Below, one piece after another: positions 1 to 36,758 of a stretch of 64,000 bases of DNA; position 1 is the stretch's first letter; each line of letters begins with the position of its first letter. The stretch covers positions 6,200,001 through 6,264,000 of the forward strand of contig NZ_CP113910.1 in the NCBI RefSeq assembly GCF_024701375.2. Direction: 5' to 3'. The translations under genes and the position numbers were made by a program. Below the pieces are notes generated by a model. The model was not told where the DNA came from and searched no databases. It worked only from the letters and a program-made list of their open reading frames with translations. The stretch is from Streptomyces sp. KMM 9044. Lineage in GTDB: Bacteria; Actinomycetota; Actinomycetes; Streptomycetales; Streptomycetaceae.

Positions 1-1713
1 GTGCTGCTGACCCACCACGACGATCATGAGCGGGCCTGCCGGGAGTTCTCTTGGCCCCGGCTCACCGCCTTCAACTGGGCCCTCGACTGGTTCGACGTGG
101 TGGCGCGCACACCCGAGCGCCGCGATGCGACCGCGCTGCACGTGATGGACCTGGCGGCCGGCACGGGCGGTGACACGTCCCTGACGTACGCCGAGATGTC
201 CGAGCGCTCCGGCCAGGTCGCCACCTGGCTGGCGGAGCTGGGCGTACGGCGGGGCGACCCGCTGCTGCTGATGCTGGACAACCGGGTGGACCTGTGGATC
301 ACCCTGCTGGCCGCGCTCAAGCTCGGCGCGGTGGTCGTCCCCGCCACCACCCTGCTCGGCGAGGACGACCTGAGCGTCCGCATGCGGCAGGCCGGCGTGC
401 GGCACGTCGTGACAAGGGCCGCCGACACCCCGAAGTTCCGCCGCATCCCGGGAATCCGGACGAGGATCGTCAGCCTGTCCGCCACTGACGGCCGCGCCCC
501 CGAGGGCTGGCACGACCTGGCCACGGCCCCTCGGGTCGGCTCCGCCTTCCGGCCCGAGGGGACGACCCTCGCCACGGACCCGCTCTTCCGGTACTTCACC
601 TCCGGCACGACCTCCCGGCCGAAGCTGGTGCAGCACAGCCACGCCTCATACCCCGTCGGTCAGCTGACGACCATGTACCTCGTCGGCCAGCGCTCCGGCG
701 ACACGCACACGACGATCGCCCAGCCCGGCTGGGCCAAGCACGCGTGCAGCATGGTCTTCGCGCCGTGGTCCGCCGAGGCGGGCGTACTGGCCCTCGCGCA
801 GCCCCGCTTCGACGTCGAGGCGACACTGGACGCGCTGGTCAGGGGCGAGGTGACCACGTTCTGCGCGCCGCCGACCGTCTGGCGCATGATCGTGCAGCAG
901 CCACTGGACCGGTGGAAGGTCTCGCTGCGCGAGGCCGTCTCCGCCGGCGAACCGCTCAACGCGGAGATCATCGAACGGATCCGGAGGGCCTGGGGGGTGA
1001 CCGTCCGTGACGGCTACGGGCAGACGGAGGCCACCGGACTGGTGGGAAACCCACCGGGCCTCCCGGTCAAGCCCGGGGCGATGGGCCGCCCGCTGCCCGG
1101 CTACCGGGTCGAACTGCTGGGCCCGGACGGACTCCCCGCAGAGGAGGGAGAGATCTGCCTCGACGTCACCGAGCGCCCGCTGGGCCTGCTGACCGGTTAC
1201 GCCGACGACGAGGGACAGCCGCTGGACCCCTGCGCCGGGCGGTGGTACCGCACCGGGGACGTGGCCCAGCGGGACGTCGACGGCTACTACACCTACGTGG
1301 GGCGGCAGGACGACGTCTTCAAGTCCTCCGACTACCGCATCTCACCGTTTCAGTTGGAGAGCGTGCTGCTCCAGCACGAGAGCGTGGCCGAGGCCGCGGT
1401 GGTGCCCGCGGCCGACGAGAGGCGACTGGCCGTGCCCAAGGCCTACGTGACCCTGGCCGCCACCGCCGAACCGTCGCGCGAGACGGCCACCGAGCTGTTC
1501 ACCTTCCTGTCCACGCGCCTGGCTCCTTACCAGCGCATCCGCCGGATCGAATTCGCGGAGTTGCCGAAGAACTCCTCGGGCAAGATCGAGCGCTCCGTGC
1601 TGAAGGCCTTCGAGACGTCGTCCGGGCAGCGGAGGGACACCGAGTTCCGCGAGGAAGACCTGCTGAACCGACGCCTGCCGCAGCAGGACTCATCACCCGT
1701 CGTACCCAACTGA
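1..1713 (+). CDS. AMP-dependent acyl/aryl-CoA ligase (may begin upstream of window)
   Basis: Member of the ANL superfamily, which activates a carboxylic acid as acyl-AMP and usually transfers it to CoA. The P-loop-like motif YFTSGTTSRPKLVQ lies near residues 198-211, YGQTEATG near 338, YRTGDV near 415 and the C-terminal catalytic lysine context KNSSGKIE near 523. At 570 residues the length and N-terminal style fit medium-chain or benzoate-type acyl-CoA synthetases rather than an NRPS A domain, since no carrier domain follows. The first codon is GTG at base 1, so the true start could lie outside the window. It is followed 26 bp later by an O-methyltransferase gene. The first C domain of the NRPS resembles EntF, which accepts an aryl starter, so supply of a starter acid is a reasonable but unproven role. 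Confidence 0.85.
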   Translation: MLLTHHDDHERACREFSWPRLTAFNWALDWFDVVARTPERRDATALHVMDLAAGTGGDTSLTYAEMSERSGQVATWLAELGVRRGDPLLLMLDNRVDLWITLLAALKLGAVVVPATTLLGEDDLSVRMRQAGVRHVVTRAADTPKFRRIPGIRTRIVSLSATDGRAPEGWHDLATAPRVGSAFRPEGTTLATDPLFRYFTSGTTSRPKLVQHSHASYPVGQLTTMYLVGQRSGDTHTTIAQPGWAKHACSMVFAPWSAEAGVLALAQPRFDVEATLDALVRGEVTTFCAPPTVWRMIVQQPLDRWKVSLREAVSAGEPLNAEIIERIRRAWGVTVRDGYGQTEATGLVGNPPGLPVKPGAMGRPLPGYRVELLGPDGLPAEEGEICLDVTERPLGLLTGYADDEGQPLDPCAGRWYRTGDVAQRDVDGYYTYVGRQDDVFKSSDYRISPFQLESVLLQHESVAEAAVVPAADERRLAVPKAYVTLAATAEPSRETATELFTFLSTRLAPYQRIRRIEFAELPKNSSGKIERSVLKAFETSSGQRRDTEFREEDLLNRRLPQQDSSPVVPN

Positions 1714-1739: not shown

Positions 1740-2516
1740 GTGTTCCATCGCAAGGACGTAGTTTTCAAGAAGCCGTCGATCTTCCGGCCGGGAATCGAGG
1801 AGTACGCGGAGGCTCATTCGACGCCGTCGTCCGAGGACCTGGAGGAGCTGCACGCCGACACCGAGCGGCTCTGCCCGGAGTGGGCGGACATCGCGACGTC
1901 GTCGGCGCAAGTGTCCTTCCTGTCGATGCTGGTCGACACGGTCGGCGCCAGACGCATCCTGGAGATCGGCACGTTCACCGGCCACGCCACCATCGGACTC
2001 GCCGCCGCGCTGCCGGACGACGGTGAACTCGTCACCGTCGACAGCTACGTGGCCGACGAGCGGGCGCGGGACCTCGCCCTCAAGGCCTTCGCGCGCAGTG
2101 CCCACGGCCACAAGATCAAGCTCGTGGAGGCCGACGCGCTGGAGACCCTGCGTACCCTGGAGGGCCCGTTCGACTTCATATTCGTCGACGCGGACAAGCC
2201 GAACTACGCCCAGTACTTCGACACGATCCTCGAACGCGGGCTGCTTGCCGACAACGGGATCCTCGCGATCGACAACACCCTGTGGGGTGGCATCGTCGTG
2301 GACTCGCTGACCCAGAAGTCCGAGGACGCGGACCGGATCCTCGCCGCCGGGGACGAGCAGCAGGCCGTCAGCGGTGACGAGTGGCTCTCCACCATGCTCA
2401 CCGAATGGGGCGCCTATGTGGTGGCCTTCAACGACAAGGTGGCCAAGGACCCGCGGGTGCGGGCCGTGATGCTGACGGTCAAGGACGGCATCACGCTGGT
2501 CCGGCACGCCCGCTGA
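1740..2516 (+). CDS. SAM-dependent O-methyltransferase, CCoAOMT/catechol type
   Basis: About 258 residues and homologous to the caffeoyl-CoA / catechol O-methyltransferase family, which is Mg-dependent and methylates vicinal hydroxyls. The SAM-binding motif I LEIGTFTGHATI and the metal-binding FDFIFVDADKPNY segment are both present, followed by LAIDNTLWGG, typical of the family. GTG at 1740 is chosen because AGAGGGGG at about 1726-1733 sits at good spacing. An in-frame ATG at 1722 precedes the ribosome-binding site and is less likely. It is probably co-transcribed with the ligase upstream. A catechol or other activated aromatic is a natural substrate, but nothing in the sequence fixes which. 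Confidence 0.88.
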   Translation: MFHRKDVVFKKPSIFRPGIEEYAEAHSTPSSEDLEELHADTERLCPEWADIATSSAQVSFLSMLVDTVGARRILEIGTFTGHATIGLAAALPDDGELVTVDSYVADERARDLALKAFARSAHGHKIKLVEADALETLRTLEGPFDFIFVDADKPNYAQYFDTILERGLLADNGILAIDNTLWGGIVVDSLTQKSEDADRILAAGDEQQAVSGDEWLSTMLTEWGAYVVAFNDKVAKDPRVRAVMLTVKDGITLVRHAR

Positions 2517-2579: not shown

Positions 2580-3617
2580 CTACCAGCCGGGCGCCCGGAG
2601 CACCTCGAAAACCGCCGCCGTCCACAGATAGCCGATGCCCACCCCGATGGTGAGGATCAGGTCGCCCCGGTCGGCGCGCCCGCCGGCGAGCAGGTGATCG
2701 AGGCCCGCGAACTGGTCGCCCGCGCCGAGATGACCGTAGTCCTGCGCCCAGGCGTAGACGGTGCGCTCCGGGGCGATGCCCAGCTGGGCGACGTAGGAGT
2801 ACTCCACGATGGTCCGCCCGATGGCCGGGTGCACCACGAACGCCACCTCTTCCAGCTTGGTGTCGGCGTCGGCGAGCGCCTCGCGTACGACCAGCTCCAG
2901 GCTCTCGCCGGTCCGGGCGATGACCTCGTCGTAGCGGAACGGGTCGGCCAGCAGGTAGTCCCGGGTGCGGGTGCGCAGGTCGACGGGCCACTCGGCCGGG
3001 TCGGGGCCGGCGGACCAGCCGCCCGTGCCCCGGTACACAGGCTCCAGCGCGGGCACGGAGCGGGAGGCCGTCGACCGCAGGCGCGCGACACCCTCCCGGC
3101 GGGACAGCACCACGGCGGTGCCGGCGTCGCCGTACACCTGCTGGTTCTCGGTGCGCCAGCGGTCCACGTAGGGCAGCCGGAAGGCGTCGCCCGTGGTGAT
3201 CAGCGCGGCGGTCGCGTCGGGCCGGGCGGTCAGCTGCGCGGCGGCCAGCTCCAGCGCGGCGAGGCCGCCGTTGGAGCCCTGCCGGATTTCGACCGCCGGA
3301 CCGTGCCCGCCGACCGTCTCCCGCTGCACGTAGTGGGCCGGGGTCCAGAAGTCCCGCCCCTGGTAGCCCATGCACCCGTGCAGCACCCACGCGAAGTCCT
3401 CGGCGGCGTGCCCCGAGCGCTCCACCGCCCGTTGTCCCGCCCGCGCCGCCAGGACGGCCGGCGCCTCGTCCTTTCCGGCGGTCCGCACCGCGCGGATGCC
3501 GTTGGACGCGTGCTCCTCGGCGGAGTAGCGCCCCGCCGCGATCGCCTCCTCCGCACTTTCCGCGTGCTCGGGGAAGTACGCCCCGGTGCCCGCCAGATAG
3601 AGATGGTTCCAGCGCAT
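2580..3617 (-). CDS. KAS III-like protein with Ser in place of catalytic Cys
   Basis: 345 residues with the thiolase fold of 3-oxoacyl-ACP synthase III. The position that holds the nucleophilic Cys in condensing enzymes reads IRQGSNGG, so it is Ser at about residue 115. The usual PHQAN histidine is kept in VVHPAIGR, while the GNTSAAS asparagine region reads YGHLGAGD. In the known family, Cys-to-Ser members such as DpsC act more like acyltransferases than decarboxylating condensing enzymes, so ester or amide acyl transfer is a plausible inference here. ATG at 3617 follows GGGAGGTCGCT. The gene lies 14 bp after the fused E1 dehydrogenase, so the two are one transcript and likely partners. Confidence 0.85.
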   Translation of the reverse strand: MRWNHLYLAGTGAYFPEHAESAEEAIAAGRYSAEEHASNGIRAVRTAGKDEAPAVLAARAGQRAVERSGHAAEDFAWVLHGCMGYQGRDFWTPAHYVQRETVGGHGPAVEIRQGSNGGLAALELAAAQLTARPDATAALITTGDAFRLPYVDRWRTENQQVYGDAGTAVVLSRREGVARLRSTASRSVPALEPVYRGTGGWSAGPDPAEWPVDLRTRTRDYLLADPFRYDEVIARTGESLELVVREALADADTKLEEVAFVVHPAIGRTIVEYSYVAQLGIAPERTVYAWAQDYGHLGAGDQFAGLDHLLAGGRADRGDLILTIGVGIGYLWTAAVFEVLRAPGW

Positions 3618-3631
3618 AGCGACCTCCCGGG

Positions 3632-5794
3632 TCAGTGGGCCTTCAGCAGTTCGTGGACCGCGGTGACGATGTCGGCGGTGCCGATGACCGCCTGCTGCTC
3701 CAGCACGGGTGTCACCGGTTGTACGTCGGCGCAGGCGAGGTACGACAGGCGGTGGACCCCGGCCTGCCGGCCCACGAGGTCGGCGATGAGCCGCGGCGCG
3801 ATCGACTGGCCACGTGCCGCGGGGTCGACGAACAGACCGTGTCCTCCGGTGCGGGCCAGGGACGACTCCAGGGTGGCCCAGTCCGTCGAGAGGGTGTCGA
3901 GCGCCCGCAGGTCCACGACCTCGGCCGAGCGGCCCGCCGCCGCCAGCTCGTCGGCGGCCGCCCGCGCCCAGTTCACCCCGATGCCGTACGAGAAGATGCT
4001 GACGTCGGTGCCCTCGCTGACGACCCGTGCGCCCTCCAGTGGCAGGCGGCGGGTGAAATCGTCCTCGGAGAGTTCGAAGACCTCGTCGTACAGCGAGGCG
4101 AACTCGATCAGCAGGACCGGGTCGTCGCACCGCAGCGCGGAGTTCAGCGTGCCCAGATACTCCCGGGGGTCGGTCGGGGCGTACACGCGCCAGCCCGGGA
4201 ATGAGGTGAACAGGCCGGCCGGATTCAGTCCGTGCTGCGGTCCGTAGCCGCGTCCGATCGGCACCTTGGCCCGCACGATCACCGGCGCCTGTGCCGTGTT
4301 GCCGTACAGCGCGCGGATCACGCCGATGTGGTTGAACAACTGGTCGGCGGCGATCAGGGCGAAGCTGCCGTACATCAGCTCCACGACGGGGCGCACGCCC
4401 GCCATGGCGGCCCCGCAGGACATGCCCACGAAACCGGCCTCGGAGATGGGCATGTTGACGATGCGAGAGCCGACCAGGGTCCGGTCGAGACGGCCGGCCT
4501 GCCAGAGCAGACCGCCGGGGTTGGCGACCTCCTCACCGAGGAAGACCACGTCGGGCGAGTGCCGCAGGGCGCCGGCTATGCCCTCCGCGATGGCGTTCTT
4601 GAAGGTCCACTTGGTGCGCGGTGCCTGCTCCTCCGTGCTCGCCCGCTCCTCGCGCTCCTCGCGCTCCTCGCGCTCCTCTCGCGCCTCCCGCGCGGGGCCG
4701 CGCAGCAGAGTGCGGACGTCCAGGACCGGCGGGACCGTGCTCGGCGCCGGCGTGGCGTCGAAGGCCCGCTCGACGAACGCCGTCGCGGCCGCGCGGATCG
4801 CCTCGTCCTCGTCGGCCGTCAGCAGTCCGTGGGCCATCAGCGTCCTCGGTAGCGAGGCCATGGGGTCGCGTTCCAGCCAGACGTCCTCCTCGGCCGCGCT
4901 GCGGTACCCGACGGCGCTGCCCCGCTCGGGGCCGGTGTGGTCGAAGTGCCGGTACGTCTCCACCTCGATGATCGCGGGCCCCGCTCCGCGCCGCATCGAG
5001 GAGAGGAGGTCCTCGGCCGTCCGGTGCAGCCCGGCGTGGTCACCGCCCCCGACGGTCGCGGCCCGCAGCCCGTGGGCGAGGCCCTGGGAGGCCAGCGGCA
5101 GGACGGCCGACGCCTCCTCGGGCCGGGTCGCCTCGGCGTAGCCGTTGTTCTCCATGACGATGAGGAGGGGCAGGCCCAGGACGCCCGCGAGGTTGGCCGT
5201 CTCGTGGAACGTGCCCTGGTTGACCGCGCCGTCGCCGATGAAGCAGACCGCGCAGGCGCCGGTTTCCCGGAGTCGGTTCGCGTACGCCAGACCGGCGGCG
5301 AGGGGTATCCCGCCGCCGACGATGGCGCTCGACCCCATGAAGCCGACCTTCTCGTGGCGCAGGTGCATGGAACCGCCCACGCCGTGGTTCACCCCGGTCG
5401 GGCGGCCCAGGATCTCGGCGAACGCCGAGGTCAGCAGCGCCTCCGCAGCCGCGGGCGGGGCGTCAGTGAGGGGGTTCCAGGCGTCCGCGACCGTACGGGC
5501 CAGTCCCTGGGCCAGGAAGTGGTGGTGGGAACGGTGGGTGCCGACCACCTGGTCGCCGTCCCGCAGGTGCCGGCAGACCGCCACGGCCACTCCTTCCTGG
5601 CCTATGGAGGTGTGCAGGGGACCGGAGACCTCGCCCCGGTCCGCGCACTGGAGCAGCCGCTGCTCGAAGGCGCGGATCGTGGCCATGTCGAAGAGCGTGC
5701 GCCGAAAGGCGGCCCGTCCGATGTACCGGAGGTCGGACGGCTCGCCGTGCTGGTGGGCGACGCGCCCCGAGGCCTCGATGTATTCGTTCCGCAT
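3632..5794 (-). CDS. fused E1 alpha/beta thiamine-diphosphate 2-oxoacid dehydrogenase
   Basis: 720 residues combining the alpha subunit (about 1-350) and beta subunit (about 395-720) of a pyruvate/acetoin/branched-chain dehydrogenase E1. The ThDP motif runs from FIGDGAVNQG to ENNGYAEA in the alpha half, and the beta half opens with TKWTFKNAIAEG and contains FLGEEVANPGG. The halves are joined by a charged linker made of repeated EER units, encoded by a 9-bp DNA repeat around 4645-4685. No E2 or E3 gene lies nearby. Split homologues such as AviB1/AviB2 use this chemistry to attach an acyl unit from a keto acid to a carbonyl instead of feeding a lipoyl complex, so carboligation is possible. ATG 5794 follows GTGAGGTCATCCTT. 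Confidence 0.88.
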   Translation of the reverse strand: MRNEYIEASGRVAHQHGEPSDLRYIGRAAFRRTLFDMATIRAFEQRLLQCADRGEVSGPLHTSIGQEGVAVAVCRHLRDGDQVVGTHRSHHHFLAQGLARTVADAWNPLTDAPPAAAEALLTSAFAEILGRPTGVNHGVGGSMHLRHEKVGFMGSSAIVGGGIPLAAGLAYANRLRETGACAVCFIGDGAVNQGTFHETANLAGVLGLPLLIVMENNGYAEATRPEEASAVLPLASQGLAHGLRAATVGGGDHAGLHRTAEDLLSSMRRGAGPAIIEVETYRHFDHTGPERGSAVGYRSAAEEDVWLERDPMASLPRTLMAHGLLTADEDEAIRAAATAFVERAFDATPAPSTVPPVLDVRTLLRGPAREAREEREEREEREERASTEEQAPRTKWTFKNAIAEGIAGALRHSPDVVFLGEEVANPGGLLWQAGRLDRTLVGSRIVNMPISEAGFVGMSCGAAMAGVRPVVELMYGSFALIAADQLFNHIGVIRALYGNTAQAPVIVRAKVPIGRGYGPQHGLNPAGLFTSFPGWRVYAPTDPREYLGTLNSALRCDDPVLLIEFASLYDEVFELSEDDFTRRLPLEGARVVSEGTDVSIFSYGIGVNWARAAADELAAAGRSAEVVDLRALDTLSTDWATLESSLARTGGHGLFVDPAARGQSIAPRLIADLVGRQAGVHRLSYLACADVQPVTPVLEQQAVIGTADIVTAVHELLKAH

Positions 5795-5863: not shown

Positions 5864-6616
5864 TCAGTCCTGGCGCAGTTGCTCGGTGATGTCCGCGACG
5901 AGAGCCTTCTCGCGCGGCACCACGTAGAAGTGGTCGCCTTCGAAGACCCGGAGGCGGAAACCGGCGGCGCTCACCGCGCTCCAGCCCTCCACGTCCGCCG
6001 TGGAGACCTCGGGGTCGGCGTCACCGCTGTACGCGGTGATCGGGCTCTTGACGGTCCGGACCTCCCGTGGCTGGTAGTCGCGCACCAGGCCGTAGTCCGC
6101 GCGGATCGCGGGAAGGACCAGCTCGCGCAGGGCCAGGTCGTCCAGAGCGGCGCCGCTGTTGCTGTCCAGCCGCCGTACGTCGGCGACCAGCGCCTCGTCG
6201 TCCAGGTCGAAGTGGTAGGCGGGCAGCAGCTGGGGGGCGGGGCGCGCGGAGACCATGAGCCGGTGGAGCGTGAAGCCGCGCCGTGCTTCCAGGCGGACGG
6301 CCGTCTCGTGGGCGATCGAGGCGCCCATGCTGTGCCCGAAGAAGGCCAGCGGCCGGTCCAGCAGCGGTGTCACCGCCTCGGCTATCGCGTCCGCGAGCGG
6401 CTCCATCGTCTTGATGAAGGGTTCGGCCAGGCGGTCCTCGCGGCCCGGGTAGCGCAACGACAGCACCTCCACGTCGGAGGGCACCTGTTTCGGCCAGTTG
6501 CGGAAGAAGCTCGCGGTGCCGCCGGCGTGCGGGAAGCACAAGAGCCTGATCCGAGGATCGCCGACCGGCAGATGGCGTCGGATCCAGCGGCTGGCGGGGC
6601 CGGTCGAAACGATCAT
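5864..6616 (-). CDS. type II thioesterase (NRPS/PKS editing hydrolase)
   Basis: About 250 residues of alpha/beta-hydrolase fold in the GrsT/TEII family, which remove aberrant acyl groups from carrier proteins. It shows LLCFPHAGG near the N-terminus, the nucleophile elbow GHSMGA around residue 95, YSGDADPEV and the C-terminal catalytic histidine in EGDHFYV. ATG at 6616 has GGAG seven bases upstream. It lies in the minus-strand operon with the FAD enzyme upstream (55 bp gap) and the fused E1 downstream (69 bp gap). No integrated thioesterase is seen in the NRPS, so this is the only hydrolase of that class in the visible part of the cluster. Confidence 0.93.
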   Translation of the reverse strand: MIVSTGPASRWIRRHLPVGDPRIRLLCFPHAGGTASFFRNWPKQVPSDVEVLSLRYPGREDRLAEPFIKTMEPLADAIAEAVTPLLDRPLAFFGHSMGASIAHETAVRLEARRGFTLHRLMVSARPAPQLLPAYHFDLDDEALVADVRRLDSNSGAALDDLALRELVLPAIRADYGLVRDYQPREVRTVKSPITAYSGDADPEVSTADVEGWSAVSAAGFRLRVFEGDHFYVVPREKALVADITEQLRQD

Positions 6617-6671: not shown

Positions 6672-7856
6672 TCAGTAGAGGAGGTCCAGCAGATCGGGCG
6701 TGTACAGATCCTCCGTCGCGCAGTCCCCGGCCACGGCGGCGAAGTAGCGCTCGGTGAACTCCGGCTTGCTCGCCACCGCCCGGAGCATGGCCAGCCGGTC
6801 CTTGCGCACGGTCAGCGCCGCGGTGAACAGCGTGCTCTGGTAACCGTCGACGAGCAGGTCCTCATGGCCTTCCGCGTAGGTCCGCAGGGCCTCCTCCAGC
6901 CGCGCCGGTTCGCGCAGGTCCTCCCCTACCGCCCCGGCGAGTGCCTCGGCCTGGAGGAAGGCGTCGGTGATGCCCTTCGCGGTGATGGAGTCCTTGTGGT
7001 GGGCGGCGTCCCCCACCAGGGCCCAGCCGGGGCCCGCTGCCCTGCGGAAGAAGTTCCGCTGGTCTCCGCTGCCGTAGAACTTGTCCGCCCGCTCCTGGCC
7101 CGCCATCCGGTCGTACAGCGTGGGGGCCGTGGTCCGTACGGCGTCCAGGTAGGCCGTCTCGACATCCGCCCGGACCCGGTTGAACTCGGCCTGCGGGAAG
7201 TACGAGGCGACCAGGGTCAGTCCGTCGTTCGTCGGGATCACGCCGATCCAGCGGCCGGGCGTCTCGTGCAGCTCGAAGTGGTCGGACACGCCTTCCCAGT
7301 AGGTGTAGTACGCGCAGGTCATGAGCGGGTCCTCGGCGACGAAGGGCGCCTTGACCGCCTCGGCCACCCGGGAGCGCATGCCGTCCGCGCCGACCACCAG
7401 CGCGGCGCGCTCCTCCATCACCGCGCCACCGGAGGTGCGGCAGCGCACGCCCACCACGCGGTCGTCCTCGAAGAGCACGTCCTCGACGGTGCAGCCCTCA
7501 CGGAACTCCGCGCCCGCCGCGACGGCAGCACGCGCGAGGATCGTGTCGAGGTGGTGGCGCCGCGGGGCGTACGCGGCGCGCTGCCCGGCCACCGGCCAGG
7601 AGCAGCCGGAGAGTTCGACGTCGGCGACCCGGTAGGTGACCCGGTCCAGCGCGGGGGCTCCCGTCGCGACGATGTCGTCCAGCACATCCCACTGGGCGAG
7701 CCGGGCGACCCCTGGCTGATGGATGTAGAGGGTGGACAGCGTGTCCCGGGGGAACGTGGCCCGGTCGACCATCAGTACACGGTGGCCCGCCCGTGCGAGC
7801 AGAAGGGCCGTCGAGGCGCCGGCGCATCGGGCGCCCACCACTATCACGTCATACAC
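6672..7856 (-). CDS. FAD-dependent monooxygenase-like oxidoreductase
   Basis: About 394 residues with a Rossmann FAD-binding start (VIVVGARCAGAS), VVGADGMRS in the middle and the second FAD motif GWALVGDAAHHKDS near residue 275. This is the architecture of class A flavin monooxygenases and geranylgeranyl-reductase-like proteins. GTG at 7856 is chosen because the FAD motif starts immediately after it and GAAGG precedes it, and a GTG 36 bp earlier lacks a ribosome-binding site. Hydroxylation or dehydrogenation of a precursor is the family role, and the substrate is unknown. It is distinct from the halogenase further right, because it lacks the WxWxIP motif. Confidence 0.85.
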   Translation of the reverse strand: MYDVIVVGARCAGASTALLLARAGHRVLMVDRATFPRDTLSTLYIHQPGVARLAQWDVLDDIVATGAPALDRVTYRVADVELSGCSWPVAGQRAAYAPRRHHLDTILARAAVAAGAEFREGCTVEDVLFEDDRVVGVRCRTSGGAVMEERAALVVGADGMRSRVAEAVKAPFVAEDPLMTCAYYTYWEGVSDHFELHETPGRWIGVIPTNDGLTLVASYFPQAEFNRVRADVETAYLDAVRTTAPTLYDRMAGQERADKFYGSGDQRNFFRRAAGPGWALVGDAAHHKDSITAKGITDAFLQAEALAGAVGEDLREPARLEEALRTYAEGHEDLLVDGYQSTLFTAALTVRKDRLAMLRAVASKPEFTERYFAAVAGDCATEDLYTPDLLDLLY

Positions 7857-8033
7857 GGCGTGCCGCCTTCGGATCCGATGGGATGAGTTCACTGAGGTGT
7901 TGGAGAGGTGCGCGGAGGTCGGGCCGAGCGTGAGCCGGCGAGGGGCCGCTCCGGGCCCGGTCCGGCGGGGCGGTTCCCGCTGGAGTTGATCATTCGCGCG
8001 AGAAGGTCATCCTCCAGGGGGAGTTGACGGGGG

Positions 8034-8912
8034 TCAAGTAGCTTCGGCCGGCGTCGGTGTGACGACCCGGGCGCGGTCCACGGCCGCCCGCACCGCCTCG
8101 GCCATGTGGTCCGACACGCCGTGACTCATCAGCGAGTCGATGCCTGCGGCCGTGAGCCCGCCGGGGGTGACCAGGGATGCCCAGGGTTCGGCCGACGCGG
8201 GGCCCGCCTGCCGGAGGAGGGCGGCGGCGCATTCGAGGGCCTCCACCGTGAAGAGCAGGGCGTGCTCCGGTGCGACGCCGGCGGCGCTCGCCGCCTCGCG
8301 GACGCCGGCGGCCGCGAGGGCGAGGAACGCCGCCCCGCTGCCGAGGGTCGACGCGGCCGTGTCCTGCTGGGACTCCGGAAGGGGCACGAAGGTGCCCAGA
8401 GGGCGCAGGGCGGCCGTGACGTGTTCCAGAGACTCGGCGGGGCTGGACGGCGCCGTGGAGACGGCCAGCACCCCGGACTTCTCCAGCGCCGCGACGTTGG
8501 TGGCCACACGGAACGCGTGCACCGGCGTGGGGCCCGCGGCCGACGTCAGCCGTGCCAGTGAGAAGCCCGCCACGAAGGAGACGACGTATCGGGCCGGCTC
8601 CGCCACCCGCAGCGCCTGGGCCAGGACGGCGTCGGCCTGGTCCGGGCGTACAGCGAGGACCAGGATGTCCGCCCCCGAGGCCGCCTCGGCGTTGTCCTCG
8701 CCGGTCGCGATCCCGTATGCGGCGGCGATTTCCGCAGCGTGAGCGCGGGACCGGGTCGTGGCTCGGAGGCGGGACGGGGGATGTCCGCCGGCGAGAAGCC
8801 GGGCCACCACGGTGCCGCCGATGTGGCCCGCTCCGAGAACCGCGACAAGCGGTACCCGATCATCGGTAAACGGAGTCCGATCATCCGTAAGTATGCAGCT
8901 AGTCTGCGACAT
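8034..8912 (-). CDS. pyrroline-5-carboxylate reductase-like protein (ProC family)
   Basis: About 292 residues. The N-terminal NADP Rossmann motif VAVLGAGHIGGT lies near residues 23-34, DILVLAVRPDQ follows, and the C-terminal ProC signature TPGGLTAAGIDSL is complete. The known reaction is reduction of a cyclic imine to proline. A dedicated copy in an NRPS cluster usually makes a substituted proline or other cyclic imino acid. The third A domain has a DVQ specificity core resembling proline-activating domains, so this enzyme may supply that residue. ATG at 8912 with GGGGGAT upstream is used, because longer readings run over the divergent acetyltransferase gene. Confidence 0.88.
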   Translation of the reverse strand: MSQTSCILTDDRTPFTDDRVPLVAVLGAGHIGGTVVARLLAGGHPPSRLRATTRSRAHAAEIAAAYGIATGEDNAEAASGADILVLAVRPDQADAVLAQALRVAEPARYVVSFVAGFSLARLTSAAGPTPVHAFRVATNVAALEKSGVLAVSTAPSSPAESLEHVTAALRPLGTFVPLPESQQDTAASTLGSGAAFLALAAAGVREAASAAGVAPEHALLFTVEALECAAALLRQAGPASAEPWASLVTPGGLTAAGIDSLMSHGVSDHMAEAVRAAVDRARVVTPTPAEAT

Positions 8913-9021
8913 TGATCCCCCATCAGTTGAGGTCCGAGTCTCCCACGACCGTGAAGCGGGGACCGGCGCAGGAGGTAGGCTCGCCGGTGAAACAAGGCGG
9001 TCCAGCAGGGGAAGTTCACTG

Positions 9022-9718: not shown

Positions 9719-10849
9719 ATGAAATTCCGAGTGGAGCGCGACGAGATTGTGGAGGCGACGGCGTGGGCGGCGCGCAGTCTGGCCTCCAGGCCGACAGTGC
9801 CGATCCTCGCCGGCATTCTGCTGAAGGCCGACGAGAGGCTGACGCTCTCCGGTTACGACTACGAGGTCTCCACCCGCGCCGAAGTCGACGTCGAGGTCAT
9901 CGAGCCCGGCACCGCGCTGGTCTCCGGCCGTCTGCTGGCCGAGATCATGCGTAGCATGCCGCCGGGCGTCATCGAGCTGGTGGGCGACGCGACCAGGGTC
10001 ACGTTGGAGGGGAGCGGCACCCGCTTCACCCTCCAGACGCTGCCCGTCGAGGACTACCCTGCCCTGCCGGTCGTACCGGGCCTGGCGGGTACGGTCGCCG
10101 GTGACGCCTTCAGCGCCGCGGTCGCGCACGTCGCCCTCGCCGCCTCGCGCGACGAGTCGGTCCCCATCCTCACCGGCCTCCACCTGGAGGCCAAGGGCGA
10201 TGTGCTCACCCTGGCCTGCACCGACCGCTACCGCATCGCCATGCGGGAGCTGAAGTGGAACCCCGTCGATCCCGACGTGTCGCTCAGCGCCGTCATACCG
10301 GCCAAGGCGATCGCGCAGACCGCCAAGTCCATGCCGTCCGGGGCCGCCATCTCGCTCAGCCTCAGCGGGAACAGCGAGTCCGGCGGGGCCGAGACCATCG
10401 GATTCGAGTTCCAGGGCCGGCGGGCCACCTCGCGCCTCATCGGTGCCGAGTTCATCAACTACCGGCAGCGGCTGCCCCGCGAGTTCGCCACCCGCGCCGC
10501 CGTGCGCACCGCGCCGTTCATGGACGCCATCAAGCGGGTGTCGCTGGTGGCCAACCGGAACTCCCCGGTGCGGCTGAGCTTCCAGGGCAGTGAGGTGATC
10601 CTGGAGGCGGCGACCGGCGATGAGGCCCAGGCCATGGCGTCGATGGACGCGCACATCGACGGCGAGGACATCGCCATCGCCTTCAACCCGCAGTTCCTCC
10701 TCGACGCGCTCAGCGCCGTCGAGACCGAGGTGGCCGTGCTCAACTGCCAGGCCCCGCTGAAGTCGGCCGTGCTGACCGGGCGGACCGCCGACGGCGAGGA
10801 CGTGGCGGACTACCAGTGCGTCATCATGCCAGTCCGGATGTCCTACTAG
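9719..10849 (+). CDS. dnaN: second DNA polymerase III beta clamp (DnaN paralogue), likely self-resistance
   Basis: 376 residues, the full length of the Streptomyces sliding clamp, with all three clamp domains. Examples are TLQTLPVEDYPALP near 100-113, ACTDRYRIAMREL near 166-178, APFMDAIKRVSLVANRNSPVRLSF in domain III and a C-terminal IMPVRMSY. In ordinary clamps the last motif reads MPVRL or MPMRL and borders the peptide-binding pocket, so the final M is a change worth noting. The chromosomal dnaN normally sits near oriC with dnaA, recF and gyrB, none of which are here. Inside an NRPS cluster the best parallel is griR, the clamp that protects the griselimycin producer. ATG 9719 follows GAGGTAGGGGGG. 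Confidence 0.95.
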   Translation: MKFRVERDEIVEATAWAARSLASRPTVPILAGILLKADERLTLSGYDYEVSTRAEVDVEVIEPGTALVSGRLLAEIMRSMPPGVIELVGDATRVTLEGSGTRFTLQTLPVEDYPALPVVPGLAGTVAGDAFSAAVAHVALAASRDESVPILTGLHLEAKGDVLTLACTDRYRIAMRELKWNPVDPDVSLSAVIPAKAIAQTAKSMPSGAAISLSLSGNSESGGAETIGFEFQGRRATSRLIGAEFINYRQRLPREFATRAAVRTAPFMDAIKRVSLVANRNSPVRLSFQGSEVILEAATGDEAQAMASMDAHIDGEDIAIAFNPQFLLDALSAVETEVAVLNCQAPLKSAVLTGRTADGEDVADYQCVIMPVRMSY

Positions 10850-10868: not shown

Positions 10869-11225
10869 ATGACCAGCAGCCAGGAACCCAAGCCGCAGAG
10901 CGATCCGGCACACTTCTTCTCGATCGACATCCGGGTCGGCCGGGTCGTGTCGGTAGAACCCTTCCCGGAGACGCGCAGGCCCGCCTGCAAACTCCGCGTG
11001 GACTTCGGCCCGTCGATGGGGGAGCTGTCGACCAGCGCGCAGGTGACCGACTATCCGGCCGACGAGCTGAAGGACCGTCTGGTGGTGGGCGCCGTCAATC
11101 TCGGGAGAAAGCGCATCGCCGGATTCGCCAGCGAATTCCTGCTCCTGGGGTCGTACGACAAGGACGGGAGGGTCCTCCTGCTGTCTCCTGATCCAGGGGC
11201 CGGCCCCGGTGACGTCGTCGGTTGA
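10869..11225 (+). CDS. csaA: CsaA-like tRNA-binding OB-fold protein
   Basis: 118 residues covering a single EMAP-II/CsaA-type tRNA-binding OB fold: FFSIDIRVGRVVSVEPFP at 15-32, PACKLRVDFG, SAQVTDYP and VVGAVNLGRKRIAGFASEFL. The family binds tRNA and, in Bacillus, has also been linked to protein export as a chaperone. Nothing else is attached. It starts 19 bp after the extra dnaN and is probably co-transcribed with it. Whether it is part of the protection mechanism, a delivery helper or a passenger cannot be told from sequence. Confidence 0.85.
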   Translation: MTSSQEPKPQSDPAHFFSIDIRVGRVVSVEPFPETRRPACKLRVDFGPSMGELSTSAQVTDYPADELKDRLVVGAVNLGRKRIAGFASEFLLLGSYDKDGRVLLLSPDPGAGPGDVVG

Positions 11226-11466: not shown

Positions 11467-12798
11467 GTGGCGAATCCGGATGCGAACACTTTCGATGTCG
11501 TCGTCGTGGGCGGTGGCCCCGCGGGGTCGTCCGCCGCGGTGACGATGGCCCGCAAAGGACTCTCCGTCCTCGTCCTGGAGCGTGCGGCGTTTCCTCGGTT
11601 CCACATCGGTGAGTCCATGCTCACCTACACGTCCGCGATGCTGGACAAGCTGGGCGTGACCGAGAAGGTGAAGGCCGAGGGCTTCCCGGTCAAGACGGGC
11701 GCGGAGTTCTGTCACACCGGCGAGGGTTTCCACCGGGTCGACTTCACCGACCAGGGCACGGGCCGCGCCCTGACCACCTTCCAGCTGGAGCGCGCCGACT
11801 TCGACGTGATCATGCTGGACCATGCCGCCGAGTGCGGGGCCACGGTCGTCCAGGAGGCGCGGGTCACCAAGGTCGACATGGAGGGCGACCGGGTCGTCGG
11901 CGTCACCTACACCGCCCAGGGCACCGAGCACAGCGTCCGGGCGCGCCGGGTCATCGACGCCAGCGGCCGCGCCGGCCTCATCACCAAGAACGTGCTGCGC
12001 AGCCGCAAGTACCCCCAGACCACCCGGACGGTCGCCGTCTTCCGCCACTACACCGGTGTCGACGAGGCGACCAACCCCGGTGTCGAGGGCGACATCCAGG
12101 TCGGCGCCCACGCGGACGGCTGGCTGTGGGCGATACCCGTGCGCAAGGACAAGCTCAGCGTCGGCACCGTGGTCCCCGCGAGCATGCTGCAGAGCGTCGA
12201 GTCGCCCGACGCCCTGTTCGAGGAGCACGTCAGCCGCGTCCCCCGCATCCGGCAGCGCATCGAGGGTGCCGAGCACGACGGGACCCTCGTCGAGAGCGAG
12301 TTCACGTACTACTCCGACCAGGTCGCGGGCCCCGGCTTCTTCGTCGTCGGCGACGCGGGCGCCTTCGCCAACCCGATCTTCTCCGCTGGCGTGTACCTCG
12401 CGCTCGTCTCCGGCACCCACGCCGGTGAGCTGACCGCCGGGCTGTTGAGCGGCGAGCGGGAGGAGGAGTCCACCGTCGACGAGTACCAGCGCTTTTACAA
12501 GACGGGCTACGACACCTACACCCGGCTGATTCACGGTTTCTACGACCATGACTACAACCTGGGCAAGTTCCTCAAGAGCACGGGTGCCCGCGTGGCCCCC
12601 ATGTGGGTCGCCCGGCTCCTGGGCGGAGACTTCTGGAGCGAGAAGAACCCGCTCGGCCGTCACCTGCGCGACCTGCCCGACAACAGCACCTTCTCCCCGT
12701 ACGAGCCGATGTACGGGTGCCCGGTCTACCCCGGGCTCGACTCCACCGAGCCGGCCGACACCAAGCTGCACGAGCCGCTGACCACGGCGCTCGACTGA
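11467..12798 (+). CDS. flavin-dependent halogenase-like protein
   Basis: About 443 residues. The FAD motif [13 protein letters not shown] (residues about 10-22) is followed by [10 protein letters not shown], a signature shared by PltA/CmlS-type FADH2-dependent halogenases, and by GWLWAIPV near 220, which satisfies the WxWxIP halogenase motif. [18 protein letters not shown] is the second FAD-binding motif. The family chlorinates or brominates activated aromatic groups, often while bound to a carrier protein, using FADH2 from a separate reductase, and no such reductase is seen here. GTG at 11467 is preferred because AGGAG ends five bases upstream. The GTG at 11461 overlaps that ribosome-binding site. 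Confidence 0.87.
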
Positions 12799-12925: not shown

Positions 12926-15900
12926 ATGTCCGAATCGCAGAGCACCTCGCACTCGCTGCTCGCAGCGCAGACTGGTATCTGGATGGGGCAGTCCCTCGAT
13001 CCATCGAGCCCCGCCTACCTGTGGGGCAACTACCTCGAGTTGCACGGCCCGATCGACGTCCCCCTGTTCCAGGCGGTCGTGGCCCGCGTGGTCGCCGAGA
13101 GCGAGACACTGCACGCGCGTTTCGTGGACGGCCCCGACGGACCGCGTCAGATATCCGTTCCGCCCACCGACTGGACCCTGCCCGTCGTCGACGTGAGCGA
13201 CGGGCCCGACCCCCTGCGGACCGTCGACGCCTGGGTGCGCGACGACCTGGCGGCCGCACCGGACCTGCGCGACGGGCGTCCCTTCCGCCAGGTGCTCTTC
13301 CGTGCAGCGCCCGACCGGTTCTTCTGGTACCAGAGCTACCACCACATCGTGCTGGACGCCTACGGGTCCGCCCTGATCAACCGCCGGGTGGCCGACCTCT
13401 ACAGCGCCCTGCGGGCAGGCGCCGAGGTCTCCCCGGACAATCCGTTCGGTTCCATGGCCGCGCTCCTCGCCGAGGAGCGGTCCTACCTCGCCTCCCCGCA
13501 GCACCAGGCGGACCAGGAGTTCTGGAGCGAGCGCTTCGCCGACCGGCCCGAGCAGATCAGCCTCACCCGCGCGTCCGCCGAGCCGCAGAACCGCTTCGTC
13601 CGCTACCGCCACGAGATGACCGCGGACGCCACCCGGTCGCTGACGGAGGCCGCCGGTGCGTTCGGCACCCGCCCGTCACGCCTGCTGATCGCCTCCACCG
13701 CCCTCTACCTGAGCCGCCTCACGGGCAGCCGGGACGTCGTCCTCGGCCTGCCGGTCGCCACGCGTCTCGACCCGGAGGCCCGGCGCACCCCCGCCATGAC
13801 TGCCAACGTCGTGCCCCTGCGCGTCACCGTGCACCCGGCCATGACCGCCGCCGAACTCGTCGCCCAGGTCTCCGGCGAGCTGAGGTCGGCGCTGCGCCAT
13901 CAGCGGCGCCGCGGCGAGGACATCCGGCGTGACCTTCAGCTGCCGGGCGCCCCGAGGCGATTCTTCGGCCCCGTCCTGAACGTCATGCGCTTCGAGACGC
14001 TGCGGTTCGGCGAGTGCGCCAGCACGATGCACAATCCCGCGGCCCCGCTGCTCGAGGACCTGTCGATCGTCGCCTACGACCGCCCCGACGCCGAGGGCCT
14101 GCGGATCGACGTCAACGGCAACCCGCGGCTGTACACCGCCGACGACCTCCACGCGCACGGCTCCCGGCTCATCACCACCCTGCGCACCCTCGCGGACCAC
14201 CCCGACCGGCCGACGGGCCGCCTGGACGTGATGTCCGCCAACGAGCTCGGCCGGGTGCTGCCCTCGGCGGCCCCCGGGCCCCGCGCGGCCACCCCGCGCA
14301 CCCTCCCGCAGACCTACGCCGCCGCGCCCCGAGACCCCTCGGCAACGGCCGTGGTCTGCGGCGGCACCACGCTGACGTACGCCGAACTCGACGCCCGGAC
14401 CAACCGGCTGGCCCGGCTCCTGATCGAGGCGGGCGTGGGCCCGGAAACGGTGGTGGCGCTGGCGCTGCCCCGGTCTGTGGAGACCGTCGTCGCGGCGCTC
14501 GCCGTGAGCAAGGCCGGCGGCGCGTACCTGCCCATCGACCCGTCCCTGCCCGCGGACCGGATCGCCTTCATGGCCGCCGGCACCCGGCCCGTCGTGGGGC
14601 TCGCCCTGTCCGCCACGCGGGAGACCCTTCCCGCCTCGCTGCCGGTGCTCGTCCTGGACGATCCCGGCACCGCGCAGCGGGCGGCGGCCTTCGGCCCCGC
14701 CGACATCCGCGACGAGGAGCGGCGCGGGGTGCTGCGGCCGGAGCACCCGGCGTACGTCATCTACACCTCGGGGTCCACCGGAACACCCAAGGGCGTCGTG
14801 GTCTCCCACCACAACGTGCGGCGGCTCTTCACCGGCACCGCGCGGCAGTTCGCCTTCGGCCCCGACGACGTCTGGACGCTGTTCCACTCCTACGCTTTCG
14901 ACTTCTCTGTCTGGGAGATGTGGGGCGCGCTCCTGCACGGCGGATGTGTGGTCGTCGTGCCCTTCGACGTGAGCCGGTCGCCCGACGACTTCCTGCGGCT
15001 CCTCGCCGACCAGCGGGTCACGGTGCTCAACCAGACCCCGTCGGCCTTCTACCAGCTCGTCGAGGCCGGCGGCCGGGACCCCGAGGCGGAGCGCCGGCTC
15101 GCGCTGCGCTGGGTCGTGTTCGGCGGCGAGGCGCTGGAACCCGCCCGGCTCGCCGGGTGGTTCGCCCGGCGTGGCGACACCGTGCCCACGCTCGTGAACA
15201 TGTACGGCATCACCGAGACGACCGTGCATGTCACCCGGCTGCCGCTCGTCGTCGCGGACGCCACCGGCCCGGAGCCCTCCCGGAGCCCCATCGGCTTCGC
15301 GCTGCCCGACCTCTCCCTGTACGTACTGGACGGCGCGCTGCGTCCGGTGCCGGTGGGCGGGACGGGCGAGCTGTACGTGTCCGGCGACGGTGTGGCGCGC
15401 GGCTACGCCGACCAGCGGGGCCTGACGGCGGAGCGGTTCGTGGCCGACCCGTACGGGCCGGCGGGTTCGCGGATGTACCGCACCGGTGACGTCGTGCGCC
15501 GGCGGGCGGACGGCGGGCTGGAGTACTTGGGGCGTGCGGACGACCAGGTCAAGATCCGTGGCTTCCGCATCGAACTGGGTGAGATCGAGGCGGTGCTCGC
15601 TCGGCACGCCGGCGTCCGGGGCGCCGTCGTCCTGGCGCGGGAGGACACGCCGGGTGAGGTACGGCTGGTCGCCTATGTGATCCCCGGGGAGGACGTCGAG
15701 GCCAACCCCCGGGAGCTGCGCGGGTTCGTCGGGGAGCGGCTGCCGGAGTACATGGTCCCGGCGGCCGTCGTCCTCCTCGACGCTTTCCCGCTGACCTCGA
15801 ACGGGAAGGTGGACCGGCGGGCGCTGCCCGAGCCGCGTTTCACCACGGACGGCCGCCGCCGGGCGCGCAGCCCGCGCGAGGACATCCTGTGCGAGCTGTT

Positions 15901-18900
15901 CGCCGAAGTGCTCGGCGTGCCCTCGGTCGGTGTGGAGGACAACTTCTTCGACCTGGGCGGGCACTCCCTGCTGGGTACGCGGTTGATCAGCCGGATCCGG
16001 GCCGTGCTGGGCGCGGAGGTCTCGATCCGGGCGCTGTTCGAGGCCCCGACCGTGGAAGGGCTGGCCCGGCGGCTGGACACCGAGACGCAGGTCCGTCCGC
16101 CCGTGACGCGCGGGACACGTCCCGGGGTGCTGCCGCTGTCGTTCGCCCAGCGCCGCCTGTGGTTCCTGCGCCGCCTGGAGGGCATCAGCGCCACCTACAA
16201 CATGGTCACCGCCGTCCGGCTCTCCGGGGCGCTCGACGTCGAGGCGCTGCGGACGGCCCTCGGTGACGTGATGGCCCGGCACGAGAGCCTGCGCACGGTG
16301 TTCCCCGAGATCGACGGGGTGCCATGTCAGCTGATCCTCGGCCCCGCCGAGGCCGGGGACCGGTTCGCCTTCTCGCTCACGGACGTGACGCCGGAGGAAG
16401 TGGACTCCGCACTGGCGGCCTCCGCCCGGCACGGCTTCGACCTGGAGCGTGAGCTTGCGCTGCGGGTGGAGGTGTTCTCGGTGGGTCCGCGGGAGCATGT
16501 GCTGTCGCTGGTGCTGCATCACGTCGCCGGCGACGGATGGTCGCTGGCCCCGCTCACCCGGGATCTGGCGCAGGCGTACGGTGCGCGGTGCCGCGGTGAG
16601 GCGCCGGTGTGGGAGCCGTTGCCGGTGCAGTACGCGGACTACACGTTGTGGCAGCGGGAGTTGCTGGGCGCACAGGACGACCCGGACAGCCTGCTCAGCA
16701 CCCAGCTCGCCTTCTGGAAGGAGGCGCTGGCCGGACTGCCCGAGCAGCACTCCCTCCCCACCGACCGCCCCCGCCCCGAGGTGAGCTCCTACCGGGGGGA
16801 CGGCCTGGAGACCTGCTTCGGCGCCGCCGTCCACCAGGGTGTCGCCGACCTGGCCCGCCGGTGCGGGGTCAGCGTGTTCATGGTGTTGCAGGCATCGCTG
16901 GCGGCGCTGTTCACACGGCTGGGCGCCGGCACGGACATCGCGCTGGGCACCCCGGTCGCGGGGCGCACCGACCAGGCCTTCGACGACCTCGTCGGCTACT
17001 TCGTCAACACCCTCGTGCTCCGCACCGACACCTCCGGCGACCCGACGTTCCGTGACCTGCTGGAGCGGGTGCGGGAAGCCGATCTGGCCGCGTACGCCCA
17101 CCAGGACGTGCCGCTGGAGAACGTGGTCGAGGTCCTCAACCCGCTGCGGTCCCTCGCGTACCACCCCCTCTTCCAGATCATGCTGGTGCTCCAGAGCGCC
17201 ACGGGCGAACTGGCGGCGTTCGACGGCCTGCGGACCCGGTACCGCCCGATGGGCAGCGGTGGCTCCCGCTTCGACATGGCGCTGAGTCTGTCGGAGACCC
17301 GCGACGCGGACGGCTCCCCGGCCGGCCTGGACGTGGTCGTTGAGTTCGCCACGGATCTGTTCGACCGGGGGTCGGTGGAGTCTTTGGTGGCGCGTTGGGA
17401 GCGGTTGCTGGGGGAGTTCGTGGTGGCTCCGGACCGTCGGATCGGGTCGGTTGATGTGCTGTCCCGGGATGAGCGGCGTGCGCTGCTCGACGGGGTCGGT
17501 GATGGTGGTGCGGCGGTGCCGTGGGTGTCGTTGGCGGGGATGGTGGAGCGGCGGGTGGCGGTTGATCCGGGCGCGCTTGCTGTGGTCTGTGGTGATCAGC
17601 GGTTGTCATATGGGGAGTTGGACGCGGCGGCGAGCCGGTTGGCGGGGTTGTTGGTGGGGCGGGGTGTGGGGCCTGAGTCGTTGGTGGCTTTGGTGTTGCC
17701 GCGGTCGGTGGAGATGGTCGTGGCGGTGTTGGCGGTGAGTAAGGCGGGTGGTGCGTATCTGCCGGTTGATCCGTCGTTGCCGTTGGACCGGGTGGCGTTC
17801 ATGGTGGCTGATACGCGGCCGGTGGTGGGTGTTGTGCTGTCGGGGACGCGGGGGGTGGTGCCCGTTGGTCTGCCGGTGGTGGTGCTGGATGATCCGGAGA
17901 CCGTGGCGGGTCTCGCGGGTATGGGGTTTGGTGAGGTGCGGGGTGGGGTGGTGCGGCCGGAGCATCCGGCGTATGTGATTTATACGTCGGGTTCGACGGG
18001 GATGCCGAAGGGTGTGGTGGTGCCGTCGGCGCAGTTGATGAGTTTCGCGTCGGTGATGGCGGATCGGTTCGGGGTGGTGCCGGGGCAGCGGGTGCTCATG
18101 GTGGCGTCTCCGAGTTTTGACGCGTCGGTGATGGAGTTGTTGATGGGGTTGCCGTGGGGCGCCGCGTTGGTGGTGGCTCCGGCGGGTGTGGTCGCGGGTG
18201 AGGAACTCGCCGCGCTCCTACGCGAACACCACGTCAGTCACGCACTGCTGCCGACCGCCCTCATGGCCACCGTCCCCGACGACGACCTGCCCGATCTCGT
18301 CTCCGTGGTCACCGGGGGCGCCGCGGTGGGGGAGGAGCTGTCGCGGCGTTGGGCGGCGGGGCGGGCGATGTTCAATGCCTACGGGCCGACCGAGGCGACG
18401 ATCTGTGCCACGCTGAGCGAGCGGCTGGAGTCGGGTGGTACGCCTCCGATCGGGGGTCCGATCAAGGGGCAGCGGGCGTATGTGCTGGACGAGGCGGTGC
18501 GGCCGGTTCCCGTCGGGGTCGTGGGTGAGCTGTATCTGGCCGGGCCCGGTCTGGCGCGTGGTTATGTGAACCGTCCCGGTCTTACGGCGGAGCGGTTCGT
18601 GGCCGATCCCTTCGGTCCGGCGGGTTCGCGGATGTACCGCACCGGTGACTTGGTGCGCTGGCGCGCGGACGGCCAGCTGGACTACGTCGGCCGCATCGAC
18701 CACCAGGTGAAGGTCCGCGGCTTCAGGATCGAACTCGGCGAGATCGACGCCGTACTGGCGGAGCACCCCGGTGTACGGGACGCGGTCGTCCTGGCGCGGG
18801 AGGACAGAGCGGGCGAGGCGATGCTCGTCGCCTACGTGGTCCCCGAGGGCGGCGCCGAGGCAGACCCCCGGGAGCTGCGCGGATTCGTGGGGGACCGGCT

Positions 18901-29146: not shown

Positions 29147-29173
29147 GCGTACGCGTCCCTCGGCCGGCGCCAC

Positions 29174-30343: not shown

Positions 30344-30466
30344 GGGGTGGTCTCCCTCGGTGAGCTCCGGCGTGCGGTTGGGGGAACGGCCGACGAACAC
30401 CCTGGACGGAGAGTCGCCCTGGCGCCGCGTCTGTGGGCGGGGCGTGAACTTGATCAAGGGTAGCCC

Positions 30467-36701: not shown

Positions 36702-36758
36702 ACCAGAACAACGAGCCCGCCTGCCGGAAGCCACGACTTGTTTCCCGGCAAGCCCTAA

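What the first reader, a model, noticed from the sequence alone, without database searches (positions are those of the whole stretch)
9719..10849. Sliding-clamp paralogue inside an NRPS cluster predicts a DnaN-targeting peptide
Seen: a full-length, divergent DnaN lies between biosynthetic genes, with no dnaA/recF/gyrB nearby. Known: the griselimycin producer carries an extra clamp gene (griR) as self-resistance to its clamp-binding peptide. Inference: this cluster makes another beta-clamp inhibitor. The visible gene set (halogenase, proC-like, leuACD, fused E1, KAS III-like) and predicted module order do not match griselimycin, so the chemotype may be new. The C-terminal MPVRM motif borders the binding pocket.
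Basis: partly seen in the sequence, partly recalled or inferred. Interest (0 to 1): 0.88.

Follow-up and report, generated by a model that had tools for sequence, protein, structure and literature searches.

The report
Extra sliding clamp in antibiotic cluster
A soil Streptomyces carries a second, altered copy of the DNA sliding clamp among genes that seem to build a chlorinated peptide, which suggests that the peptide attacks the clamp of other bacteria and that the altered copy protects its maker.

Summary
Window 9719-10849 encodes a full-length beta clamp (250 bits to TIGR00663), heading a plus-strand run of clamp, CsaA-like, halogenase and NRPS genes. The genome also has the housekeeping clamp beside dnaA/recF/gyrB, 53% identical. 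Of 392 same-genus genomes only this one and CB02058 carry the cluster clamp; APSN-46.1 has an 85% copy, with collinear neighbours. dN/dS is 0.13. Best explanation: self-resistance by an altered second target, as with griR, so the product is probably a clamp-binding peptide. The assembly line is not griselimycin's: no methyltransferase domains.

Corrections: the C-terminal MPVR equals the housekeeping clamp's. The pocket changes I177, I242 and R247 are not unique: 16 of 16 second clamps read in another actinomycete family have I/V177, I/V242, R/W247; 10 of 10 with flanks show no NRPS domain nearby. A tree without pocket columns joins the cluster clamps to 8 of these (93/88), though raw identity is closer to housekeeping clamps. 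Recruitment from an older second-clamp lineage is likely, not proven. GriR, MypR and the product were unavailable.

The parts
9719..10849 (+). extra beta sliding clamp, 376 aa, proposed self-resistance target
   Evidence: pocket changes
10869..11225 (+). CsaA-like tRNA-binding-domain protein, 118 aa, 19 bases after the clamp gene (below NCBIfam cut-offs)
   Evidence: present in both relatives
11467..12798 (+). flavin-dependent halogenase-like protein, nearest NCBIfam model CmlS but far below its cut-off (open frame from 11422; 11467 is a likely start by eye)
12926..27045 (+). NRPS, C-A-T-C-A-T-C-A-T-C-A-T-C over two frames (12926-23380 and 23215-27045); change of frame near 23.2 kb
8034..8870 (-). 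pyrroline-5-carboxylate reductase-like (ProC), divergent from the clamp; start approximate
6672..7892 (-). FAD-dependent oxidoreductase
5864..6616 (-). thioesterase, probably type II
3632..5794 (-). fused E1 (alpha plus beta) thiamine-diphosphate dehydrogenase-like
2580..3650 (-). KAS III-like synthase; start approximate
1803..2516 (+). O-methyltransferase-like; start approximate
1..1713 (+). acyl-CoA ligase-like AMP-binding protein; the frame begins before the window
27143..27730 (-). leuD-like
27737..29173 (-). leuC-like
29174..30457 (-). leuA-like (2-isopropylmalate/homocitrate synthase type)

Best explanation
The gene encodes a working second sliding clamp that protects its maker. The surrounding NRPS cluster makes a modified, probably chlorinated peptide that binds the protein-binding pocket of bacterial clamps and blocks polymerase docking. 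The cluster clamp has a changed pocket (Arg at 247 where the others are hydrophobic, Ile at 242 in place of Pro, and others), so it would keep tethering polymerases while binding the peptide poorly. It is probably expressed together with the halogenase and NRPS because it heads that run of genes. Shown: full-length clamp, second copy, conserved position in three strains, purifying selection, pocket differences in the alignment. Inferred: co-transcription, resistance, the target and chlorination of the product, and the effect of the substitutions.
For: A housekeeping dnaN exists elsewhere, with dnaA, recF and gyrB. The clamp lies 19 bases before a small gene followed by halogenase-like and NRPS genes on the same strand. 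The region is collinear at about 97% DNA identity in CB02058 and about 78-84% in the aligned stretches of APSN-46.1. dN/dS of the clamp is 0.138 and 0.128, the lowest of 7 cluster genes tested in both comparisons. Of 109 other extra clamp loci from 101 Streptomyces genomes, 0 have an NRPS condensation domain in the fetched flanks (up to about 9.5 kb a side) and 1 has a weaker adenylation-like match; the same test is positive at the three cluster loci and negative at the own housekeeping and third-clamp loci. Position 247 is L or I in 218 of 225 reference clamps and hydrophobic in 109 of 109 other extra Streptomyces clamps, but Arg here. GriR, the known case, is reported at 55% identity to DnaN (PMC8625390 passage); this clamp is 53% identical to the own housekeeping one.
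Against: I177/I242/R247 are shared with second clamps of another actinomycete family that have no NRPS domain nearby, so they may be ancestral and unrelated to resistance. Enrichment of rare residues in the pocket is weak: 6 of 18 pocket columns against 51 of 351 others, one-sided p 0.043, tested after the pocket had been looked at; among columns conserved in the references 3 of 11 against 25 of 142, p 0.32. The product and its target are unknown. CB02058 was in a panel of 16 strains tested against M. smegmatis and is not among the four named as active (PMC10143065 passages). One NRPS frame is broken in this assembly. No structure model was made, so the pocket rests on alignment alone.
Confidence: 0.7

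Rival explanations
1. A second clamp of an old lineage that does another job in replication or repair, carried into the cluster by transfer and not a resistance gene.
For: The key pocket residues and a moderately supported tree place it with second clamps of one family, in which 40 of 40 sampled genomes have two or more clamps; 10 of 10 second copies examined with flanks lie away from dnaA/recF/gyrB and from NRPS domains.
Against: It heads the halogenase-NRPS gene run, is kept there in three strains, and is otherwise missing from the genus sample: 2 of 392 genomes, own included, have it.
Confidence: 0.17
2. The clamp is a resistance gene, but the product does not use the canonical pocket; it acts at another clamp surface or on clamp loading.
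For: 57 of 369 aligned positions carry residues rare in the references and shared by the three close cluster clamps; 51 of them lie outside the pocket list.
Against: Griselimycin and mycoplanecin A, whose clusters carry resistance clamps, were seen in the canonical pocket (PMC10817943).
Confidence: 0.08
3. A chance neighbour or decaying gene of no present use.
For: Transposase genes and a group II intron maturase lie beyond the leu genes, and one NRPS frame is broken.
Against: dN/dS of 0.13 and open clamp frames in three strains.
Confidence: 0.05

Closest known systems
GriR, extra DnaN of the griselimycin cluster (Streptomyces DSM 40835)
   Same: Second dnaN belonging to an NRPS cluster; similar distance from DnaN (55% reported, PMC8625390 passage; 53% here). 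Proline-type residues are predicted here (motif reading) and are present in griselimycin.
   Different: Griselimycin uses ten modules in three NRPSs, with methyltransferase domains, and griE/griF for methylproline (PMC5676206 passages). Here Pfam finds no methyltransferase domain in the two NRPSs and no griE/griF-type enzyme among the frames scanned, but a halogenase-like protein, ProC-like, fused E1 and leuACD. GriR's sequence was not compared.
MypR, extra DnaN of the mycoplanecin cluster (Actinoplanes awajinensis)
   Same: Second dnaN; that cluster also has KAS III, P450, radical SAM and leucine-type elongation genes (PMC10817943 Results parts 1 and 2), as here by family.
   Different: MypL is a LeuD-aminotransferase fusion and no leuC was found there; here leuA, leuC and leuD are separate. 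Mycoplanecin modules have four N-methyltransferase domains and the cluster has griE/griF homologues. Homology gene by gene was not tested.
   Same: I/V177, I/V242, R/W247 in 16 of 16 read; one clade with 8 of them when pocket columns are left out.
   Different: No NRPS domain or dnaA/recF/gyrB nearby in 10 of 10. Only 45.5-49.5% identical to P0001, against 52-55% for four f17 housekeeping clamps compared.

Membership tests
Bacterial beta sliding clamp (DnaN) | three clamp domains, family score above cut-off | tested here: met
   Pfam domains 1, 2, 3; TIGR00663 251 bits, cut-off 137.65
Cluster-borne self-resistance clamp (griR/mypR kind) | extra dnaN inside an NRPS cluster, besides a housekeeping dnaN | tested here: met
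Cluster-borne self-resistance clamp (griR/mypR kind) | association kept across producers | tested here: met
   three strains with collinear regions, (that they produce the compound is not known)
Cluster-borne self-resistance clamp (griR/mypR kind) | same lineage or pocket changes as GriR/MypR | not testable with these tools
   no protein named GriR or MypR, or from their producers, in the listed hits (lists capped at 120 in 21 and 78)
Cluster-borne self-resistance clamp (griR/mypR kind) | confers resistance to the product; product binds DnaN | not testable with these tools
   needs the compound
Griselimycin/mycoplanecin gene cluster | NRPS with N-methyltransferase domains | tested here: not met
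   Pfam at E 1e-3 finds C, A, T and TE/hydrolase domains only
Griselimycin/mycoplanecin gene cluster | griE/griF homologues for 4-alkylproline | tested here: inconclusive
   no 2-oxoglutarate dioxygenase or alcohol dehydrogenase domain among the frames scanned; GriE and GriF themselves were not used as queries
Second-clamp lineage of family f17 | I/V177, I/V242 and R or W at 247 | tested here: met
Second-clamp lineage of family f17 | common ancestry without pocket columns | tested here: inconclusive
   clade with 8 of 17 such rows at 93/88 (weaker, 80/85 with two such rows, in the 69-row tree); the 17 rows are not one clade; union of all not rejected, p-AU 0.364; tie to Streptomyces housekeeping clamps p-AU 0.056

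The most novel reading that the evidence does not exclude
The cluster makes a third family of clamp-binding natural peptides, with an assembly line unlike those of griselimycin and mycoplanecin, and its resistance clamp was taken from an ancient second-clamp lineage whose pocket is built differently (Arg at 247). The standing second clamp of that actinomycete family may itself be a natural shield against clamp-directed antibiotics.
Probability: 0.35. Interest if true: 0.85.

Novelty: new variant of a known kind. Interest (0 to 1): 0.7.

Why it matters
Griselimycins and mycoplanecins are the only natural clamp inhibitors with a cluster-borne resistance clamp that turned up in my searches. A third cluster with a different assembly line would give a new chemical starting point for a validated target. 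The work also points to a second clamp with an altered pocket in one actinomycete family (40 of 40 sampled genomes have two or more clamps; 16 second copies read), whose purpose is open and testable.

Tried and rejected
GriR and MypR were sought three ways without success: a general protein search, a search limited to a pocket-bearing stretch (only the two known orthologues) and a profile search; the lists show 120 of 4470 and 120 of 7986 hits, so they may be hidden. The idea that the cluster clamp is a recent duplicate of the host's own dnaN was set aside: it is only 53% identical and the Streptomyces housekeeping clamps form their own clade (99/96), though holding the two together is rejected only at the border (p-AU 0.056). 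The idea that it belongs to the common distant extra clamps of Streptomyces (29-47% identical) was rejected: in the trees the rows of that type that were included fall elsewhere. The C-terminal MPVR motif was dropped as evidence. A claim of strong pocket enrichment was dropped because it fails on conserved columns. Armentomycin-type leuACD plus halogenase chemistry was considered; the search listed one halogenase review, not read. Adenylation codes were read by motif and are only indicative: Thr-like, unknown, Pro-like, unknown, Thr-like, Pro-like, and Val-like for the free-standing A-T; the code meanings are recalled. The third A domain of the upstream NRPS lacks its core motif and a fourth is a remnant by eye. 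Structure prediction was not run.

Full report
What is there. The frame 9719-10849 (+) encodes a complete beta clamp of 376 residues. The genome, 7.43 Mb in 3 contigs and 99.9% complete, has three TIGR00663 matches: the housekeeping clamp at C1:3767353, this one, and a shorter one at C1:6865478 below the family cut-off. The housekeeping gene lies with dnaA, recF and gyrB; the same E. coli queries (dnaA in part) find nothing in 20 kb upstream of the window plus its first 35 kb.

Setting. From about 18 kb before the window to 30.5 kb inside it lie: radical SAM/B12 protein, DUF364 protein, an NRPS (four A stretches, three C, four T and a TE by Pfam; order A-T-C-A-T-C-A-T-C-A-T-TE from motif positions, with the last two A domains damaged or cut down), MbtH, a thioesterase-like frame, free-standing A-T, P450, acyl-CoA ligase, O-methyltransferase, KAS III-like, fused E1, thioesterase, FAD oxidoreductase, ProC-like reductase, the clamp, a CsaA-like protein, a halogenase-like protein with WLWAIP, a second NRPS starting with a C domain with the motif HHIVLDA, and leuD, leuC, leuA. 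The clamp, CsaA-like, halogenase-like and second NRPS genes follow each other on the plus strand. No methyltransferase domain was found in either NRPS. Gene starts and borders come from a simple composition-based caller and by eye.

Who else has it. In a sample of 392 genomes of the genus, own included, only the own genome and G053 have the gene at 98% or more; the next best match is 55%. A scan of 84,980 species genomes with six peptide patterns gave Streptomyces sp. APSN-46.1 (85%) and CB02058 (98%), then 50% or less among the 80 loci kept; records of the window's own genome may be left out there. G053 is CB02058: the contig length 30,367 agrees. The general protein search listed 98, 85 and 57% and then 55% or less among the best 120 of 4470. 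The region is collinear in both relatives as far as their contigs reach; in APSN-46.1 the stretch 7871-9036, which holds ProC, did not align as DNA but encodes a 61% identical protein. dN/dS of the clamp is 0.138 against CB02058 and 0.128 against APSN-46.1, the lowest of seven cluster genes in each comparison.

Background of extra clamps. The 102 genus genomes that I listed with two or more matches were searched again; one search scored only five candidates per genome, so others may have been missed. Their further copies are 109 loci from 101 genomes, after leaving out the two halves of a broken housekeeping gene in G145 and the CB02058 cluster copy; they are 29-47% identical to P0001. None of 109 has an NRPS C domain in the fetched flanks of up to about 9.5 kb (some contigs end sooner); one (L132) has an A-like match. 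Positive controls at the three cluster loci found C and A domains; the own housekeeping and third-clamp loci gave none.

Pocket. Pocket residues follow a review (PMC11139829, passages). The sequences were aligned with E. coli and 225 reference actinomycete clamps: 30 Streptomyces housekeeping, 78 from other named genomes, 117 from the protein search. The references are mostly but not purely housekeeping. P0001, P0003 and P0004 have V152, I177, I242, Q246, R247, L344, S346, V360. Position 247 is L or I in 218 of 225; the 7 others (P0006, P0009, P0048, P0067, P0068, P0079, P0105) have K, Y or R together with V/I242 and I/V177. P0005, 57% identical and of unknown setting, has I177, I242, H247, L344, V360. 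M362, P363, V364 and R365 are as in the housekeeping clamp, so the C-terminal motif carries no information. Rare residues are somewhat enriched in the pocket (6 of 18 against 51 of 351, p 0.043, one-sided, tested after looking), but not when only conserved columns are counted (3 of 11 against 25 of 142, p 0.32).

A second-clamp lineage. In a class-wide sample of 394 genomes, 40 of 40 genomes of family f17 have two or more clamp matches (counted from its table; 31 of them searched again). Both copies were read in 10 of them: the copy with dnaA, recF and gyrB has L177, P (8) or V (2) at 242 and L247; the other, with none of those genes and no NRPS domain in its stretch, has I/V177, I/V242 and R (8) or W (2) at 247. 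Six more second copies, from six other genomes and fetched without flanks, all have I177, I242, R247 with the string FIDYRxRL, close to FINYRQRL of P0001. So 16 of 16 second clamps read share the pattern; 24 of the 40 genomes were not read at this level.

Trees. A quick tree on all columns puts the four cluster-type clamps in one set with 11 f17-type second clamps and 6 polar-247 proteins (SH-aLRT 96; the tool warned of long branches). A careful tree of 69 rows without pocket columns no longer gave that whole set; the cluster clamps joined P0009, P0048, P0067, P0079 and two f17 second clamps at 80/85. With six more rows the cluster clamps (100/99) join P0009, P0048, P0067, P0079 and 8 f17 second clamps at 93/88, while 9 other f17-type rows fall elsewhere with weak support; Streptomyces housekeeping clamps are a separate clade at 99/96. 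AU tests on the 69-row tree did not reject all polar-247 clamps as one clade (p 0.364) and came close to rejecting the cluster clamps with Streptomyces housekeeping clamps (p 0.056). Against the second-clamp reading stands raw identity: P0001 is 52-55% identical to four f17 housekeeping clamps and 45.5-49.5% to ten f17 second clamps. A recent copy of the host's own clamp is unlikely; recruitment from an older second-clamp lineage is the better reading, and convergence at the pocket is not excluded.

Interpretation. A second target gene inside a cluster, kept in place and under selection in three strains, is the usual sign of self-resistance, and two clamp cases are known: griR (55% identity to DnaN, PMC8625390 passage) and mypR (PMC10817943, Results parts 1 and 2). 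The predicted assembly line differs from both. Adenylation codes suggest two Thr-like and two Pro-like residues, but these are motif readings. The strength of the case is the setting, not the pocket, because the pocket pattern exists where no such cluster is nearby.

Literature. Searches of the held library for griselimycin/DnaN/self-resistance, mycoplanecin or DnaN, sliding clamp with clusters, duplicated dnaN with genome mining, extra or second dnaN, and the two strain names showed, in the listed titles and abstract openings (at most 20 papers a search), no report of this cluster or of the f17 second clamp. CB02058 was one of 16 strains tested against M. smegmatis; four others are named as active (PMC10143065 passages). 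That is mild evidence against, or the cluster was silent.

Noticed in passing
f17 genomes, e.g. L266, L276, L285-L290: 40 of 40 sampled genomes of one actinomycete family have two or more clamps; 16 of 16 second copies read have I/V177, I/V242 and R/W247. Role unknown; recurrent flanking frames look PPOX-like and NUDIX-like (by eye).
   Followed up: partly
window 23100-23400: Change of reading frame inside a condensation domain of the second NRPS; sequencing error or real lesion not decided.
   Followed up: partly
window 10869-11225: CsaA-like tRNA-binding-domain gene directly after the clamp, present in both relatives (95 and 71% identical); role in the cluster unclear.
   Followed up: partly
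20.2 to 18.1 kb before the window (L042/L043): FkbH-like frame (named by eye from its motif) on the minus strand near the radical SAM gene; may belong to the cluster.
   Followed up: no
window 33470-37277: Group II intron maturase and two transposase genes beyond the leu genes at the right side of the cluster.
   Followed up: no
G000:C1:6865478-6866176 (L003, L006): Third clamp-like protein, 235 aa as read, matching only the second and third clamp domains, with P242 and L247.
   Followed up: partly
109 Streptomyces extra clamps (L128-L236): Many have S at 363, R at 346 and K at 365 (92, 92 and 73 of 109): another clamp type with an altered pocket.
   Followed up: no
L043 4935-15659: Upstream NRPS has one A domain without its core motif and one A remnant, while a free-standing A-T with a Val-like code and a P450 lie next door; loading in trans is possible.
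   Followed up: partly
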